Assembly (NCBI GenBank): GCA_024275165.1
Contig: JAJRZQ010000025.1
Location: forward strand, 1-64,000
Origin: a bacterium
GTDB taxonomy: Bacteria > SAR324 > XYD2-FULL-50-16
Direction: 5' to 3'
DNA length: 64,000 nucleotides
Of the stretch, positions 48,979-54,778 are shown in pieces; position 1 is the stretch's first letter; every line of letters begins with the position of its first letter. The notes below the pieces were generated by a model. The model ran no database searches. It worked only from the letters and a program-made list of their open reading frames with translations, and was not told the origin of the DNA. The translations under genes and the position numbers were made by a program.

Positions 48979-50271
48979 ATGAAGACGAAATTAGACGATT
49001 TCCGCCTCCGCCTAGGCAAGAATGAATATGTACCCATCATGATTGGGGGGATGGGGATGGACATCTCCACCAGCAAACTGGTTTTGGAAGCAGCTCGTTT
49101 AGGCGGGATCGCGCACCTATCCGATGCCTTGATCAGCGCTGTGACCGACCGCCATTTCGGCACCAATTACATTAAAGAGCGGGCGAAAAAATATAAAAAA
49201 GACGCCCATTTGGTCAATAAACTCCACGCTCAGTTTGATCTGGAAGAAACCTATCGAGCCGTTCGCCTTTTAGTGGAAGACACGATGGAAAAAAAGCAGG
49301 GGAAAGGAGGCATTTTCCTCAATATCATGGAAAAACTTTCCATGGCCAATTCCAAAGGCACCATGCAGGCTCGCCTCAACGCCGCCTTAGATGGGGGGAT
49401 TGACGGCATCAGCTTGGCAGCGGGGTTGCATCTAGGTAGTTTGAAACTCATTGAAGACAACCCTCGCTTTCGCCATGTAAAAATCGGCATCATCGTCAGC
49501 AGCGCGCGGGCCTTGAAACTCTTTCTCATGCGGGCCGCCAAAATCGACCGCATGCCGGACTATATTGTGGTCGAGGGGCCCCTGGCCGGGGGGCATTTGG
49601 GCTTTAAAGTCGATAATTGGCAAACCTTTAACCTCAAAGACATCACCATGGAGGTTTTGGCTTATTTAAAAAAAGCGGACCTCAATATTCCCGTTATTCC
49701 CGCAGGGGGGGTTTTCACGGGCCGTGACGCCGTGGACTTTATTGAGCTCGGTGCCTCGGCCGTGCAGGTAGCGACTCGCTTTACCGTTACTCGAGAGGCG
49801 GGGTTTCCCGCCAAAACCCAACAGAGATATTTTAAGATCAAAGAAGAAGAGATTGTGGTCAACCTCTATAGCCCCACGGGCTACCCTATGCGGATGCTCT
49901 ACGACAGTCCCTGCATCGGCACCGGCATGAGACCCCAATGTGAAAACTTAGGTTTTATTTTAGATGATGAAGGCGATTGCAGCTATATCTCTGCCTACAA
50001 CGCCGAGGTGGAGCGTACCGAAGGCAAGGGAAAGCTGGTCGTACCGGAGAAAACCTGCCTTTGCACCTACATGAAAACATATGGAACCTGGACCTGCGGT
50101 CACATGGCTTATCGCTTGAAGGAGACGACAAACCAACTCCCTGACGGGAACTATCAACAATTGACGGTCGCTCAGGTCTGGCACGACTACCTCCACAGTA
50201 CCGACCATACCCATATCAAGCCTCCTCTGCCCAAAGAGGCGCAGATCTTAGATCAGCACCCGGATCGTTGA
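48979..50271 (+). CDS. Nitronate monooxygenase / 2-nitropropane dioxygenase-family flavoprotein
   Basis: The 430-residue protein is an FMN TIM-barrel: PIMIGGMGMDISTSKLVLEA at the start, the substrate/FMN loop with GPLAGGHLGFK (about residues 200-210), IPVIPAGGVFTGRDAVDF and LGASAVQVATRF at the phosphate site. This matches the NMO/2-nitropropane dioxygenase superfamily, which also includes enoyl reductases (FabK/PfaD). After residue 310 it carries six Cys (312, 321, 334, 360, 362, 373), a Cys-rich extension. A bidirectional terminator follows. The substrate is unknown. Confidence 0.85.
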   Translation: MKTKLDDFRLRLGKNEYVPIMIGGMGMDISTSKLVLEAARLGGIAHLSDALISAVTDRHFGTNYIKERAKKYKKDAHLVNKLHAQFDLEETYRAVRLLVEDTMEKKQGKGGIFLNIMEKLSMANSKGTMQARLNAALDGGIDGISLAAGLHLGSLKLIEDNPRFRHVKIGIIVSSARALKLFLMRAAKIDRMPDYIVVEGPLAGGHLGFKVDNWQTFNLKDITMEVLAYLKKADLNIPVIPAGGVFTGRDAVDFIELGASAVQVATRFTVTREAGFPAKTQQRYFKIKEEEIVVNLYSPTGYPMRMLYDSPCIGTGMRPQCENLGFILDDEGDCSYISAYNAEVERTEGKGKLVVPEKTCLCTYMKTYGTWTCGHMAYRLKETTNQLPDGNYQQLTVAQVWHDYLHSTDHTHIKPPLPKEAQILDQHPDR

Positions 50272-50275
50272 GATC

Positions 50276-50307
50276 AAAAAAACCTCCTAAATTTGGAGGT
50301 TTTTTTT
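50276..50307. terminator. Bidirectional intrinsic terminator between NMO and HPP genes
   Basis: AAAAAAACCTCC (50276-50287), loop TAAATTT, GGAGGTTTTTTTT (50295-50307). It forms a perfect stem with T-runs in both orientations, serving both the converging nitronate monooxygenase gene and the NO-reductase operon. Confidence 0.92.
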
Positions 50308-50309
50308 GC

Positions 50310-50849
50310 CTAGAGCCAGTGCTTGGGATAACTTCTCGTATGGGCCAGATTGTTGACCACCAAAGCAACCACCAACATAACCACGGCCCCGCTCAAGGCG
50401 GGGATCAAGGCATAAAGATAGCCCAAGCGGTGAATGGAATCCGACCCCAGCACCGCGATCAAGGCGGTGGCTCCCCCGGGGGGGTGCAGCGTCTTGGTGG
50501 CCTGCATGAGAGCGATGGCTAAAGAAACCGCCAGGGCAGAAGCCAACACAGGCTCAGACCCGAAGAGTTGAAAACAGGTCACCCCCACTAAGGCGGAGAA
50601 AAAATGCCCTCCCAAAAGGTTTCTCGGTTGGGACAAGGGCGCCTCAATCGCCCCGTAGAGCAACACGGCAGAGGCGCCAAAACTCCCGATAATCATTACC
50701 AGGTCGTTGCTGGTCGCCCAATTCCAATGCAAGGCGGCGACACAGGCAATCCCTAAAAAGCTCCCCAACCAGGACCAGAAAATTTCGATTTTAGGGATTC
50801 GCGGGGCACTCCGCCCGACTCCCTTCATTTTTTTTATATACTGCTTCAC
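50310..50849 (-). CDS. HPP-family integral membrane protein (possible nitrite transporter)
   Basis: The 179-residue protein has four to five membrane segments and the name-giving motif HPPGGATALIAVLGSD (about residues 122-137), with SQPRNLLGGHFFSALVG upstream. Plant and cyanobacterial HPP proteins have been reported to transport nitrite; that is family knowledge, not proof here. It lies 22 bases after the small membrane-protein gene and ends at the bidirectional terminator. It is thus the last gene of the NsrR-linked NO-reductase operon, which fits a nitrogen-oxide role. Confidence 0.88.
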   Translation of the reverse strand: MKQYIKKMKGVGRSAPRIPKIEIFWSWLGSFLGIACVAALHWNWATSNDLVMIIGSFGASAVLLYGAIEAPLSQPRNLLGGHFFSALVGVTCFQLFGSEPVLASALAVSLAIALMQATKTLHPPGGATALIAVLGSDSIHRLGYLYALIPALSGAVVMLVVALVVNNLAHTRSYPKHWL

Positions 50850-50871
50850 CTAATTCCTCTTTGCAAATTGC

Positions 50872-51432
50872 CTAGTCCGAGCTCCTCCTCGGCCCCTGAC
50901 GCACCAATAAAACTCCGGTCCAAAAAACCAGAAACATCAAAAAAACTGGGGCCGCCCACAACATAGCGACCCCGGTAGCCTGTTGTTGTTCTAAAGAAAA
51001 GCTCGCGCAAACCTGCACCGATGTTTGACTTAAAATCAACCCGTACATGCTCCACATGGCGATGCCATAGATTGCCGCGGCAATTTGCACGGGAAAGGCC
51101 AAAAGCGGCAAGCTCAAGGCTAGTACCGCCCCAGATATCAAAAGACTCAAATGAGCCAAAAAATCAATCCCCTCTTGGGCTACCGCCAAATCCAAAGAAC
51201 GAGGGACCATCCAAAACAAAACCCCACCCCAGCCTAAAATCAGCAGACCCAAAGCATTGCCCGGCCCCCAAGAGAGGCGCAAAGGGCTGAAACGCACTCC
51301 CACAGCCCCTAAAATGAAAAGCAAGGGGAACTGAATCAGCATCAAGCGACTCATGGAGTCATCCAGGTAGGGATCGAGAGGGGGGAACATCAACAGAGCT
51401 ACGGTTAGCGCCCAAAACAATCGGCGAATCAT
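50872..51432 (-). CDS. Polytopic membrane protein of the NorSY-SenC operon (Orf1-like)
   Basis: The ATG at 51432 overlaps the senC stop (ATGA) and has AAGAGGGG upstream. A longer frame to 51573 would lie within senC. The 186-residue protein has about five membrane helices, few charges and the segment YLDDSMSRLMLIQFPLLF, faintly like CtaG oxidase-assembly proteins. In the described norSY-senC-orf1 clusters of ammonia oxidisers a small membrane protein occupies this same position. An assembly role is likely, but this is inferred from context. Confidence 0.7.
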   Translation of the reverse strand: MIRRLFWALTVALLMFPPLDPYLDDSMSRLMLIQFPLLFILGAVGVRFSPLRLSWGPGNALGLLILGWGGVLFWMVPRSLDLAVAQEGIDFLAHLSLLISGAVLALSLPLLAFPVQIAAAIYGIAMWSMYGLILSQTSVQVCASFSLEQQQATGVAMLWAAPVFLMFLVFWTGVLLVRQGPRRSSD

Positions 51433-52061
51433 AACCCCTCTTCCCGCAAGGCTGCCTGCAACACCTCCCAAGTGGGAACCTCGGCAAAAGATTGCGTGAT
51501 CAACCCTTGGGGGTTGATCAAAAAGGTTCGGTTGGTATGACGAAGCTGACCCTGAAGATCCAACTCGACCCAAGCGCCCATGGCTTTAAGTTGCTCCCAG
51601 TAGGCCTCCAGCCCGATGTCCTGAGGGCTGGCAAGCAGCCATTGCCGAGGCGAGCCATAGCCCTCCCACACCAGACGCAATAGTTTTACTGAATCCTGCT
51701 CCGGGTTTACCGTTAAGGTCAAGAGGGTTAGAGAGGTTTCTTTTTGCTCTTGCAGCTTTTGGTGCAACCCTTGATAAGCTTCGACCGCCAAGGGACAGGA
51801 GACCGAACAAGCGAGAAAACCAATATTCAACAAATAAAAACGGCCTCTCAGTTGATCTAGGCGAAAGCCCCTCCCCTGATGATCCAAAAACCATAAAAGG
51901 GGAGGGAGCCTGGGCAAGGGCTCGGCAGCTTGAAACACAAATTCGTCGGTGGTAAAGGCCTTAAAACCCAAAGTCCACCAAGAAAGCCCCCCCCAGATCA
52001 GCCCTAAGGCAACCAGGGGGGCGGCTCCCAATTTGAAAAAAAGCCCTAGTTGCCTGACCAT
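51429..52061 (-). CDS. senC: SenC/Sco-family copper chaperone of the NO-reductase operon
   Basis: The 210-residue protein has an N-terminal membrane anchor (about residues 10-32) and a thioredoxin-like domain. The copper ligands are C85-x3-C89 (LACSVSCP) and His175 (LRHTNRTF). It starts 16 bases inside the subunit I gene, indicating coupled translation, and overlaps the next gene by ATGA. It would load the CuA centre of the neighbouring subunit II. It is clearly distinct from the Sco at 23383, so each copper system appears to have its own chaperone. Confidence 0.9.
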   Translation of the reverse strand: MVRQLGLFFKLGAAPLVALGLIWGGLSWWTLGFKAFTTDEFVFQAAEPLPRLPPLLWFLDHQGRGFRLDQLRGRFYLLNIGFLACSVSCPLAVEAYQGLHQKLQEQKETSLTLLTLTVNPEQDSVKLLRLVWEGYGSPRQWLLASPQDIGLEAYWEQLKAMGAWVELDLQGQLRHTNRTFLINPQGLITQSFAEVPTWEVLQAALREEGL

Positions 52062-53485
52062 GCCTGCTTGACGCCTTTAAAGACGGCAATGTAATAGGCT
52101 ATTGCCCCCACCGCGATCAAAAGGATAAACAAAGAGGCAATGCCTGCGGTCATTTGCCCTACCTGGGCGACCGACTTTATGGGAAGGGAGTCGTAATTCG
52201 CCATGCGGCGAGGCACAGACTGAATTCCCCCAATAAAGAACATGGCGACAAAGCCAAAGCCGCCCAAAAGCAAGCTCCAGAGGCCAAAGCGAGCGAGCTT
52301 ATCCTCTTTTGGCCCCATCAGGTAATAAAGAACCGCCAAGATCATCAAGACCACACCGAGCAAAAAGTAGGTATGGAAGTGACCGGGAACCCATTGCGTG
52401 TTGTGCAAAACTTGGTTTAAACGAATGGTGGAGTCCACCACGGCGGCAAAACCGCCAACAATCCAACCCATGATCCCCAAGACAAAGGCCAGGGGAACAA
52501 AACTCCATTTCATGTCAGCGCGGTAAATCTGGGCGAAAACCCCAAAAATGGTCACCACGGTTGCCGGCACGGTACTCAAGTAAGAGGCGAACTGCCCGAC
52601 ATACTGCACCCAAACCGGTTGCCCGAAGTCAAAATAGAGGTGATGGAAGTAAGCGAGAAGAATCAAAAACAAGCTCGCGTTCCAAGAAAGGGCAATGATC
52701 TTGTTCATCTTCCAAGCGCGCCCCGAGTAGAGGGGCAGCATGGCATAAACCGCGGCAACCCCAAAATAAAGGGTGATATTCACTAAAGTATGGCCGAATA
52801 AAAAGACCATGTTTTTCATCAACAGGGCATCAAACTCAAGCGCCGGATTGAGCCATTTCGCCAAGTAGAGCATGAGCATGATCGCGCCCACAACGGTGGT
52901 CAAGGCCCCTGCGATCATGCTCACCGAAGTGATCACCACCATGGGGGGCAAGTCTTTTTCTTTGGGGTTTCCACTGAGATATCCCCAGCCCAGCCCCTCG
53001 GCAAAGCCATACCTTTTGGCAATGGCGCGGAGTACATCCAACTGCCCCAAAAGCCAAGCGACCCCTAAAAGCATTACGGAAATCACCGCGGTGCCCACCG
53101 CCCATTCGGGCCAAGTCTTGATAAAAGGCAAAGGATAAAGCACATACCAACCGGCCCCGAAGCGACCGATTAAGGTCGAGAGCATCAACCCCACCACCCC
53201 TAAAAGGATCAGGACATAATTGAATTTAGCCAGCCCCAAACTCGGTTTCGTGTATTGGGATATGAGATACCAGACCCCAATATAGGCCGCTACATAAAGT
53301 ACCCCTACCATTCCCAACCCGTGCAGGGTCATTAAGGCATAAAAGAAGTCCGGGGGCAGATCCAGGGCTCCTGCTTGGTTGAGGCGCATGGTAAAACCCA
53401 AGAGTACCAGCACAAAGAATACGACCAACCCCGTAATGGCGTATACAATCGCCAATCTTTTGGTCTGCAATTGATTCTCAGACAT
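52046..53485 (-). CDS. Haem-copper reductase subunit I, NorSY/sNOR-type nitric oxide reductase (predicted)
   Basis: The 479-residue protein has about 12 membrane helices with all haem and CuB ligands: His55 (TLHGLGM), His232 (LFGHTLVN), His281/282 (FHHLYFDFGQ), His369 and His371 (WVPGHFHTY). The VPGHFH form is typical of B-family (ba3-like) enzymes. The residue four after His232, Tyr in O2 reductases (GHPEVY), is Asn236. That loss is seen in NO reductases derived from oxidases. Context (NsrR, CuA subunit, SenC, Orf1) agrees. It is likely a cytochrome c- or quinol-linked NO reductase; gene-name order (NorS versus NorY) is uncertain. Confidence 0.82.
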   Translation of the reverse strand: MSENQLQTKRLAIVYAITGLVVFFVLVLLGFTMRLNQAGALDLPPDFFYALMTLHGLGMVGVLYVAAYIGVWYLISQYTKPSLGLAKFNYVLILLGVVGLMLSTLIGRFGAGWYVLYPLPFIKTWPEWAVGTAVISVMLLGVAWLLGQLDVLRAIAKRYGFAEGLGWGYLSGNPKEKDLPPMVVITSVSMIAGALTTVVGAIMLMLYLAKWLNPALEFDALLMKNMVFLFGHTLVNITLYFGVAAVYAMLPLYSGRAWKMNKIIALSWNASLFLILLAYFHHLYFDFGQPVWVQYVGQFASYLSTVPATVVTIFGVFAQIYRADMKWSFVPLAFVLGIMGWIVGGFAAVVDSTIRLNQVLHNTQWVPGHFHTYFLLGVVLMILAVLYYLMGPKEDKLARFGLWSLLLGGFGFVAMFFIGGIQSVPRRMANYDSLPIKSVAQVGQMTAGIASLFILLIAVGAIAYYIAVFKGVKQAWSGN

Positions 53486-53506
53486 TTTTTTTCTCCTTTT
53501 GGATGC

Positions 53507-54055
53507 TTATAAAACGGTGAATTTAGAAGTCATGGACTGGTGTCCCATGCCGCAATATTCGAGACAGACTAAAAAATATTCACCCGGTTCATTAAAGGTA
53601 TAATATAGCTTGGAAGGATACCCCGGCATCGCTTGGGTCTGGATCAACAATTGCCCTTGGGAATTGTAGATGGCCAAGCCGTGGTTGACATCTTCGGAGC
53701 TGATTGAGAATTGCACCAACTTCCCGGCGGGAACAGCGGTGGGGGCAATTTCGGTGGTGCCCGATAAGGCTTTGATCTCGGTGACTTCCCAGAACCACAG
53801 CTTTCCCTTTACGGTGACCTCGTACGCTGGAGCCGCGCCCTCAGGCGGGAAGTAAGGCAAGCCCCGCAAGGTAGCAAAAAGAGTAATGAGAATGACCAGG
53901 GATAAAAATATAAAATATTTGCCCCGCATGGCGTAAATGCCTGGGGTGACGGCCTCTGCCCTTTCAGGGCTGCGAGTCGAGCGAATCAACCAAAAGGTGA
54001 TGCCAAAAATGGTCATCGTCCCAATGAGGGTTATGAGTCCTGCTTGCCAAGCCAT
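53507..54055 (-). CDS. CuA-containing subunit II of the NorSY-type reductase
   Basis: The 182-residue protein has two membrane helices (about residues 6-25 and 46-63) and a cupredoxin domain. The complete CuA site is His125 (DVNHGLAIY), C164-x3-C168-x3-H172-x2-M175 in CLEYCGMGHQSM. It is short compared with aa3-type subunit II and lacks a fused cytochrome c. It is the first gene of the operon, with a leader of about 127 bases from the predicted promoter, and is followed by subunit I after 21 bases. Confidence 0.88.
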   Translation of the reverse strand: MAWQAGLITLIGTMTIFGITFWLIRSTRSPERAEAVTPGIYAMRGKYFIFLSLVILITLFATLRGLPYFPPEGAAPAYEVTVKGKLWFWEVTEIKALSGTTEIAPTAVPAGKLVQFSISSEDVNHGLAIYNSQGQLLIQTQAMPGYPSKLYYTFNEPGEYFLVCLEYCGMGHQSMTSKFTVL

Positions 54056-54165
54056 AGTACCTACCTTTATTGTAGAAGCGTTAACAGAGGGGGAATGCTT
54101 TCACCCCGTTTCATTGTATGCTGAGGCGATTTTGTTTACGATAGGGTGGTTGCCTCCAGCCCCCT

Positions 54166-54190
54166 AAAGATGCATTTAAATTACATCTTT
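54166..54190. promoter_or_regulatory. NsrR operator (predicted) over the norSY transcription start
   Basis: AAAGATGCATTT (54166-54177), central A, AATTACATCTTT (54179-54190). The arms pair at 10 of 12 positions, and the left arm equals the published NsrR half-site AAGATGCATTT. It directly abuts the -10 element of the minus-strand promoter, so bound repressor would cover the start site. The cognate regulator gene is 133 bases away. Confidence 0.75.
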
Positions 54191-54217
54191 TATAAAACAG
54201 GCTTCGATTTAAATCAA
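54189..54217 (-). promoter_or_regulatory. Sigma70-type promoter of the norSY operon
   Basis: On the minus strand TTGATT (54217-54212) and TATAAA (54194-54189) are separated by exactly 17 bases. Transcription should start near 54182, inside the predicted NsrR operator. This is one of the best promoter matches in the window. Confidence 0.65.
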
Positions 54218-54223
54218 TATGTA

Positions 54224-54234
54224 AAATGCATCTT
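54224..54234. promoter_or_regulatory. Second NsrR half-site (predicted)
   Basis: AAATGCATCTT is an exact NsrR half-site in the opposite orientation, just upstream of the -35 of the norSY promoter and about 23 bases before the -35 of the nsrR promoter. The partner half to its left is poorly conserved. It could support repression of both directions. Confidence 0.5.
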
Positions 54235-54256
54235 TATGGACTTTGCCGAAGCCCGC

Positions 54257-54285
54257 TTGTTCATTTGTGAAAAATAGGCTATCCT
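54257..54285 (+). promoter_or_regulatory. Putative promoter of nsrR
   Basis: TTGTTC (54257-54262) and TATCCT (54280-54285) with a 17-base spacer place a start near 54292, about 31 bases before the ATG at 54323. The matches are moderate. No clear Shine-Dalgarno precedes the ATG. Confidence 0.4.
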
Positions 54286-54322
54286 GAATGAAAAAGGTTT
54301 CATTTACTACCCGCACAAAGCC

Positions 54323-54778
54323 ATGCGCATTACCAAACAATCCGATTACGCCTTGCGCGTACTCATGTACCTTTGTGCCTATCCAAAACGCTCTTGCACC
54401 ATCAAGGAGATTTCCGAGAGCTTTGACATCTCCCAAAACCATTTAATGAAGGTCGTTCAGCATTTGGCGCAGCACGGCTTTGTCAAAACAATCCGGGGGA
54501 AAAACGGAGGGATTTGGCTCGGCCGGCCGGCAGAGCAAATTTTAGTGGGGGAGGTCTTACGCAAACTTGGCGAGGGGGATGATTTATTAGAATGTTTTAG
54601 AGAAGAAGACAGCTGTAAGATATCCCCCCTCTGCGCGTTGAAAAAAATCTTTAACCAGGCGAACGAAGCCTTTTTCAACGCGTTGAATCAATACAGTCTC
54701 GCTGACATCATTGGTGATCGGGCAGCGATTTCCAACCTGCTGCAACGCTTGCCAAGCCCATGCAAGCTTGAGGCTTAA
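54323..54778 (+). CDS. nsrR: NsrR-type Rrf2-family nitric-oxide-sensing repressor
   Basis: The 151-residue winged-helix protein matches NsrR rather than IscR. Its start is MRITKQSDYALRVLMYL, the recognition region is ISQNHLMKVVQHL, and the wing is TIRGKNGGIWLGRP. The three iron-sulfur Cys, C91, C98 and C104, lie at nearly the same positions as in E. coli NsrR, with SPLC in place of TPAC. Its Fe-S cluster is expected to react with NO and release DNA. It is divergent from the norSY operon, with NsrR-type operator sequences between them. Confidence 0.9.
   Translation: MRITKQSDYALRVLMYLCAYPKRSCTIKEISESFDISQNHLMKVVQHLAQHGFVKTIRGKNGGIWLGRPAEQILVGEVLRKLGEGDDLLECFREEDSCKISPLCALKKIFNQANEAFFNALNQYSLADIIGDRAAISNLLQRLPSPCKLEA

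What the first reader, a model, noticed from the sequence alone, without database searches (positions are those of the whole stretch)
50310..54778. NsrR-controlled NorSY-SenC-Orf1-type nitric oxide reductase operon with an HPP protein
Seen: a divergent NsrR-like regulator with three Fe-S cysteines, and an operon of CuA subunit II, haem-copper subunit I, SenC, a small membrane protein and an HPP protein, ending at a shared terminator. Known: norSY-senC-orf1 clusters (sNOR) occur in ammonia oxidisers, and NsrR senses NO. Inference: standard annotation would label this a cytochrome oxidase, but it is more likely an NO reductase that removes NO. The HPP gene would extend the operon toward nitrite transport.
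Basis: partly seen in the sequence, partly recalled or inferred. Interest (0 to 1): 0.85.

Follow-up and report, generated by a model that had tools for sequence, protein, structure and literature searches.

The report
NO-sensor-controlled alternative nitric oxide reductase operon
A SAR324-type bacterium carries an operon, probably switched on by nitric oxide, for an unusual copper-containing nitric oxide reductase that standard annotation mistakes for a respiratory oxidase, and the operon ends in a probable nitrite transporter that takes the place of a different transporter used in related operons.

Summary
At 50310-54778 a divergent NsrR-type regulator faces a tight operon norS-norY-SCO/SenC-orf1-HPP, which ends at a terminator shared with the convergent neighbour. 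The reading also holds. NorY has Asn where A- and B-type oxidases have the catalytic Tyr (78 of 78 clade members), lacks the C-type Tyr too, and keeps all haem and CuB histidines. In an ML tree it sits in a well-supported clade with the Ruegeria pomeroyi enzyme, away from A, B, C, cNOR, qNOR and Gln-type (eNOR-like) enzymes. R. pomeroyi has the same six-position operon with a formate/nitrite transporter (FNT) where the window has HPP; in Mariprofundus, HPP is followed by a C-terminal FNT remnant. A near-perfect NsrR operator lies in the divergent promoter and is the only such site in the 2.69-Mb genome. orf1 looks like a shortened CtaG copper-assembly protein. The genome has NapA and NirB but no NirK, NirS, NrfA or NosZ, so the operon most likely removes NO, making N2O. 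NO reductase activity, NO induction and nitrite transport are inferred, not measured. No Nitrosomonas NorY or bNOR sequence could be fetched. The enzyme is a known kind; the operon variant appears new.

The parts
54323..54778 (+). nsrR-type Rrf2 regulator; Cys91, Cys98, Cys104 and Asp8 as likely Fe-S ligands
   Evidence: Pfam Rrf2 3.4e-37; best NCBIfam model is NsrR at 132.7 bits, below its cut-off of 182; best PDB match S. coelicolor NsrR 5n07; ligands invariant in five sNOR-linked copies
54167..54189 (.). NsrR operator AAGATGCATTTAAATTACATCTT (11-1-11 inverted repeat)
   Evidence: 1 mismatch to the consensus, 0.01 expected in the window; the only site in the genome at up to 3 mismatches; same AAGATG-N11-CATCTT arms in the Mariprofundus nsrR-norS gap
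54224..54234 (-). second NsrR half-site (reads AAGATGCATTT on the - strand)
   Evidence: sequence read directly; E. coli NsrR is suggested to bind single 11-bp motifs (PMC5320621)
53507..54055 (-). norS: membrane-anchored CuA subunit II; CuA ligands H125, C164, E166, C168, H172, M175
   Evidence: Pfam COX2; the six ligands 100% conserved in 64 homologues
52046..53485 (-). norY: haem-copper subunit I of sNOR type; H55, H369 and H371 as haem ligands, H232/H281/H282 at the CuB site, Asn236 in place of the catalytic Tyr
   Evidence: Pfam COX1 9.2e-60; alignment; tree; model pLDDT 86.6 with the haem-copper oxidase fold
51429..52061 (-). SCO1/SenC protein, probable CuA copper chaperone (C85-x3-C89, H175)
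   Evidence: Pfam SCO1-SenC 5.6e-14; C, C and H 100% conserved in 63 homologues
50872..51435 (-). orf1: membrane protein, shortened CtaG-like copper assembly factor
   Evidence: 17 of 31 family members hit Pfam Caa3_CtaG at E up to 1, best 8.9e-6; hhalign against CtaG 89%, E 2.3e-6; real CtaG occupies the cluster in two loci that lack both SCO and orf1
50310..50849 (-). HPP-family membrane protein, probable nitrite permease, with HPPGGAT motif
   Evidence: Pfam TM_HPP 8.5e-61; same position in L025 and L099
50279..50307 (.). bidirectional intrinsic terminator shared with the convergent gene 48979-50271
   Evidence: fold -14.8 kcal/mol, z -4.38

Best explanation
This is an NO-inducible sNOR (norSY-senC-orf1 type) nitric oxide reductase operon in a SAR324 / Ca. 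Lambdaproteobacteria genome. Shown by sequence: gene content, active-site residues, phylogenetic placement, operator and operon conservation. Inferred: NsrR represses the operon and, when its Fe-S cluster reacts with NO, leaves the operator at 54167-54189 so that the operon is transcribed. SCO loads CuA on NorS, and the CtaG-like ORF1 probably helps load CuB in NorY. Electrons from a periplasmic cytochrome c or cupredoxin enter at CuA and pass through the low-spin haem to the haem/CuB site, where two NO become N2O and water; Asn236 replaces the redox Tyr that O2 reduction needs. HPP moves nitrite (or a similar anion) across the membrane, so that periplasmic nitrite made by NapA can reach cytoplasmic NirB while NO formed on the way is removed. 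The main role is NO detoxification rather than full denitrification.
For: NorY has Asn at the A/B-type Tyr position in 78 of 78 clade sequences, and the C-type Tyr position is V, I, L or F in all 77 with a residue there. Tree support is 98.7/100 with R. pomeroyi; the published sNOR residue is N. R. pomeroyi has the order Rrf2/CuA/COX1/SCO/orf1/FNT. The NsrR operator is the only one in the genome, and its arms recur only in the Mariprofundus nsrR-norS gap among 130 loci. FNT is found in 13 of 85 clusters, always within 263 bp of the core; Mariprofundus has HPP plus an FNT C-terminal remnant. The genome has NapA and NirB, but no NirK, NirS, NrfA or NosZ. Its other COX1 is an A-type oxidase with the Tyr.
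Against: No biochemical proof of sNOR activity was found in the papers read; a transcriptomic study proposes that N. europaea sNOR is a high-affinity oxidase (PMC6967387). An invariant Tyr240 lies one helix turn below Asn236. NsrR scores below the NCBIfam NsrR cut-off. The closest relative, L025, lacks the AAGATG-N11-CATCTT operator although it has the same operon. Nitrite transport by this HPP rests on distant homologues and position.
Confidence: 0.82

Rival explanations
1. NorSY is a high-affinity terminal O2 reductase that tolerates or is induced by NO, as proposed for N. europaea sNOR.
For: sNOR genes rise 2.7- to 10.8-fold under O2 limitation in N. europaea (PMC6967387); the three CuB His and CuA are kept; fold matches are led by oxidases.
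Against: Neither the A/B-type nor the C-type catalytic Tyr is present in the clade. A dedicated NO-sensor operator controls the promoter. The genome already has an A-type oxidase.
Confidence: 0.1
2. It is an NO reductase, but of another Asn-type class (bNOR/CuANor, or perhaps nNOR) rather than sNOR.
For: CuANor also has Asn at this position (PMC8756737); no bNOR or nNOR sequence could be fetched for the tree.
Against: R. pomeroyi, whose former genus name Silicibacter is listed with sNOR, and a Ca. Methylomirabilis record lie in the same clade; SCO and orf1 neighbours match the norSY-senC-orf1 layout.
Confidence: 0.08
3. HPP is in the operon by chance or transports something other than nitrite (the NO reductase reading would stand).
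For: Only three sNOR loci in two lineages have HPP; relatives L026, L027, L028 and L101 lack it in the stretch held.
Against: HPP sits where FNT sits in R. pomeroyi, and in Mariprofundus HPP is followed by a truncated FNT; HPP proteins of cyanobacteria and chloroplasts transport nitrite (Maeda et al. 2014, as cited in PMC4137279).
Confidence: 0.35

Closest known systems
norSY-senC-orf1 (sNOR) of ammonia-oxidising bacteria
   Same: CuA subunit II, haem-copper subunit I, SenC and orf1 in the same order as listed in PMC4940428; sNOR active-site residue N (PMC8756737)
   Different: The window adds a divergent NsrR with its own operator and an HPP gene; NsrR NE0926 of N. europaea is numbered far from norSY-senC-orf1 NE0683-86. 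Sequences were not compared directly because no Nitrosomonas record could be fetched.
Ruegeria pomeroyi DSS-3 SPO_RS20765-RS20740 (megaplasmid)
   Same: Divergent Rrf2/NsrR, CuA subunit, COX1 with HVFIN, SCO, orf1, then a transporter; same six positions
   Different: The transporter is FNT, not HPP; NorY 34% identical; the intergenic palindrome is a different one
Mariprofundus sp. OFTM123 (L099)
   Same: NsrR, norS, norY, SCO, orf1, HPP, and the AAGATG-N11-CATCTT operator
   Different: HPP is followed by the last 73 residues of an FNT; NorY 39% identical
Ca. Lambdaproteobacteria RIFOXYD2_FULL_50_16 (L025)
   Same: Whole six-gene cluster, NorY 75% identical
   Different: Operator sequence diverged; a heavy-metal P-type ATPase lies downstream
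B-family (ba3-type) oxygen reductases
   Same: CuA subunit, CuB His ligands, overall fold
   Different: They have the catalytic Tyr and the K-path Tyr that the window lacks

Membership tests
sNOR (norSY-senC-orf1) nitric oxide reductase | Asn in place of the helix-VI catalytic Tyr (H-x3-N) | tested here: met
   GHTLVN, N236; 78 of 78 clade members; criterion from PMC8756737 Table A4
sNOR (norSY-senC-orf1) nitric oxide reductase | CuA cupredoxin subunit II encoded just upstream | tested here: met
   norS with all six CuA ligands
sNOR (norSY-senC-orf1) nitric oxide reductase | Gene order norS-norY-senC-orf1 | tested here: met
   order in ammonia oxidisers from PMC4940428
sNOR (norSY-senC-orf1) nitric oxide reductase | Groups with named sNORs in a tree with oxidase and NOR families | tested here: met
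   98.7/100 with R. pomeroyi and Ca. Methylomirabilis (genus-level anchors only); Nitrosomonas NorY and bNOR not available
sNOR (norSY-senC-orf1) nitric oxide reductase | No proton channel | tested here: inconclusive
   The B-type K-path Tyr (ba3 Y244 position) and Ser are lost, but Thr312 and Tyr247 remain
sNOR (norSY-senC-orf1) nitric oxide reductase | Reduces NO to N2O | not testable with these tools
   needs enzyme assay
B-family (ba3) O2 reductase | Catalytic Tyr four residues after the helix-VI CuB His | tested here: not met
   Asn236
C-family (cbb3) O2 reductase | Catalytic Tyr six residues before the HH pair | tested here: not met
   Ile275; V, I, L or F in the clade
cNOR/qNOR | Glu near FeB and grouping with NorB | tested here: not met
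   separate branch from S. meliloti cNOR and C. necator qNOR; Asn at the site
bNOR (CuANor) | Tree placement and one proton channel | not tested
   no bNOR sequence could be fetched
NsrR | Three Cys plus Asp8 Fe-S ligands | tested here: met
NsrR | Score above the curated NCBIfam NsrR cut-off | tested here: not met
   132.7 bits against 182, though it is the best-scoring model; the name NsrR is therefore used for how it looks to work, not as formal membership
NsrR | 11-1-11 AAGATGCATTT-type operator at the target | tested here: met
   E. coli sites in PMC5320621
NsrR | NO-dependent derepression | not testable with these tools
   needs experiment
HPP family (TM_HPP) | Pfam PF04982 above cut-off | tested here: met
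   204.6 bits
HPP family (TM_HPP) | Nitrite transport | not testable with these tools
   needs transport assay
CtaG (caa3 assembly) for ORF1 | Clear homology to Pfam PF09678 Caa3_CtaG | tested here: inconclusive
   window ORF1 itself shows only a weak DUF1404 hit; 17 of 31 relatives hit CtaG weakly; hhalign 89%

The most novel reading that the evidence does not exclude
sNOR operons carry a dedicated nitrite-handling slot filled by unrelated permeases (FNT or HPP), plus a CtaG-like CuB-loading protein (orf1), and in this lineage the whole set is the sole target of a private NsrR-type switch; that makes sNOR an NO/nitrite homeostasis module rather than a terminal oxidase.
Probability: 0.45. Interest if true: 0.6.

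Novelty: new variant of a known kind. Interest (0 to 1): 0.5.

Why it matters
Whether sNOR reduces NO or O2 is debated in the literature read here (PMC6967387). An NsrR-type operator found at this operon alone, the absence of both catalytic Tyr positions and the nitrite-transporter slot all favour NO, and R. pomeroyi DSS-3 carries the same layout, so the question can be tested there. SAR324 bacteria are reported as major carriers of napA and nor genes in oxygen-deficient zones (PMC10359470), so calling this enzyme an oxidase or an NO reductase affects N2O budgets.

Tried and rejected
B-family oxidase reading: rejected on residues and tree. Structure search: model pLDDT 86.6, but oxidases fill the top ranks and cbb3 and a NOR follow at Z about 32, so the fold does not separate oxidase from NOR. 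Viral-contig scan: no relatives. PMC5665590 (Nitrococcus sNOR) is not held. Promoter scan gave no more sites than shuffles, and the terminator scan missed the AT-flanked hairpin at 50279-50307 that folding finds. The TIGR04246 NosZ hit in the genome is only norS itself. A full denitrification pathway was looked for and not found.

Full report
Observation. The five operon genes on the - strand overlap or are separated by about 21-22 nt, and a divergent Rrf2/NsrR-type gene lies 267 bp from norS. The operon runs into a hairpin terminator at about 50279-50307 (z -4.4) that also serves the convergent NMO-like gene 48979-50271. The genome is 98% complete at 2.69 Mb. Its nearest named relative for norY is Candidatus Lambdaproteobacteria RIFOXYD2_FULL_50_16 at 75% identity, so the host is probably a SAR324-type bacterium.

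Subunit I. Pfam and NCBIfam call it a cytochrome oxidase subunit, but far below the curated oxidase cut-off (97.8 bits against 670.75); the R. pomeroyi homologue is annotated as an oxidase. The helix-VI motif is GHTLVN: His232 is kept and Asn236 replaces the catalytic Tyr. In 78 aligned clade members position 236 is always Asn, and the C-type Tyr position (275) is hydrophobic. The haem ligands and the other CuB histidines are kept. The published table gives N for sNOR and CuANor, Q for eNOR, D for gNOR, E for cNOR/qNOR and Y for oxidases (PMC8756737). An ML tree with A-type, ba3-type, cbb3, cNOR, qNOR and Gln-type sequences puts the window in one clade with R. pomeroyi, Thermomicrobium and Ca. 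Methylomirabilis (98.7/100). Two Ca. Methylomirabilis species are reported to carry an sNOR (PMC6094997). The limits are that no Nitrosomonas NorY, bNOR or nNOR sequence could be fetched, and that the named anchors are genus-level. The B-type K-path Tyr is lost, which fits but does not prove the absence of a proton channel. A predicted model has the haem-copper oxidase fold but does not discriminate.

Accessory proteins. NorS keeps all six CuA ligands, and SCO its two Cys and one His, in 100% of homologues. ORF1 looks like a shortened CtaG: 17 of 31 family members hit Caa3_CtaG weakly, best 8.9e-6, profile comparison gives 89% and E 2.3e-6, and two clusters without SCO and orf1 (L017, L021) have a real CtaG instead. 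The window ORF1 itself scores only to DUF1404, so this is a likely, not certain, assignment.

Regulation. The intergenic region holds AAGATGCATTTAAATTACATCTT at 54167-54189, 21 of 23 identical to the E. coli ytfE NsrR site (PMC5320621). It is expected 0.01 times in the window and is the only site at up to three mismatches in the whole genome. A perfect second 11-bp half-site lies at 54224-54234. Among 130 fetched loci, the AAGATG-N11-CATCTT arms occur elsewhere only in the nsrR-norS gap of Mariprofundus (the other hits are copies of the window). R. pomeroyi has a different palindrome, and L025 a diverged sequence. The regulator has Asp8 and three Cys that are invariant among sNOR-linked copies, and its best solved relative is S. 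coelicolor NsrR, but it scores below the NCBIfam NsrR cut-off. NsrR-type control is therefore a strong prediction, and this looks like a one-operon regulon.

HPP. In 85 sNOR-type loci (about 1.0 Mb), 13 contain a formate/nitrite transporter, all within 263 bp of the cluster, and 3 contain HPP, all inside the operon. R. pomeroyi has FNT exactly where the window has HPP. In Mariprofundus HPP is followed by only the last part of an FNT (profile positions 180-240), as if HPP had displaced it. HPP proteins transport nitrite in cyanobacteria and chloroplasts (PMC4137279, PMC7438415). Exchange of two unrelated permeases at one position is the best argument that nitrite, or a like anion, is the cargo, but relatives L026, L027 and L101 have neither in the stretch held.

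Physiology. The genome has NapA (1314 bits), a NirB-type nitrite reductase next to a NarK-type transporter, and DsrAB, but no NirK, NirS, NrfA, NosZ or FNT. So no dedicated NO-forming nitrite reductase was found. NO would come from neighbours, from chemistry, or from side reactions of nitrite reduction (inference), and the operon is most simply an NO-removal system that yields N2O. This fits reports that SAR324 carries napA and nor genes in oxygen-deficient zones (PMC10359470). The alternative that sNOR is a high-affinity oxidase (PMC6967387) is kept as a rival.

Verdict. The enzyme is a member of a known, proposed NOR family; the NsrR-controlled, HPP-bearing operon, the FNT/HPP exchange and the CtaG-like nature of orf1 are the parts for which no earlier description was found in the papers read. 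Interest is moderate.

Noticed in passing
L005, L006, L007 (relatives G025, G020, G011): COX1-family proteins of the same class with FAHNLME: Glu at the catalytic-Tyr position and a haem-ligand His aligned with Met; they form their own long branch. Possibly an undescribed NOR-like type.
   Followed up: partly
L010 (G013), L011 (G034): Gln-type (GHSAQQ / GHSSQQ) eNOR-like subunit I in the same class; G034 has both this and an sNOR-type NorY.
   Followed up: partly
L089:7680-9170: A second, divergent Asn-type COX1 (AFAHTLVN) on an Acidobacteria contig that also has an sNOR-FNT operon; it branches outside the main clade.
   Followed up: no
L070:5893: A Sphingobacteriales NorY homologue with GHTLST and a CuB His replaced by Gln, so it may be inactive or changed in function.
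   Followed up: no
L099:5196-5417: FNT reduced to its C-terminal 73 residues directly behind HPP in the Mariprofundus sNOR operon.
   Followed up: yes
L131 (own genome C17:157-159 kb): dsrA and dsrB are present, so the host has a dissimilatory sulfur pathway as well.
   Followed up: no
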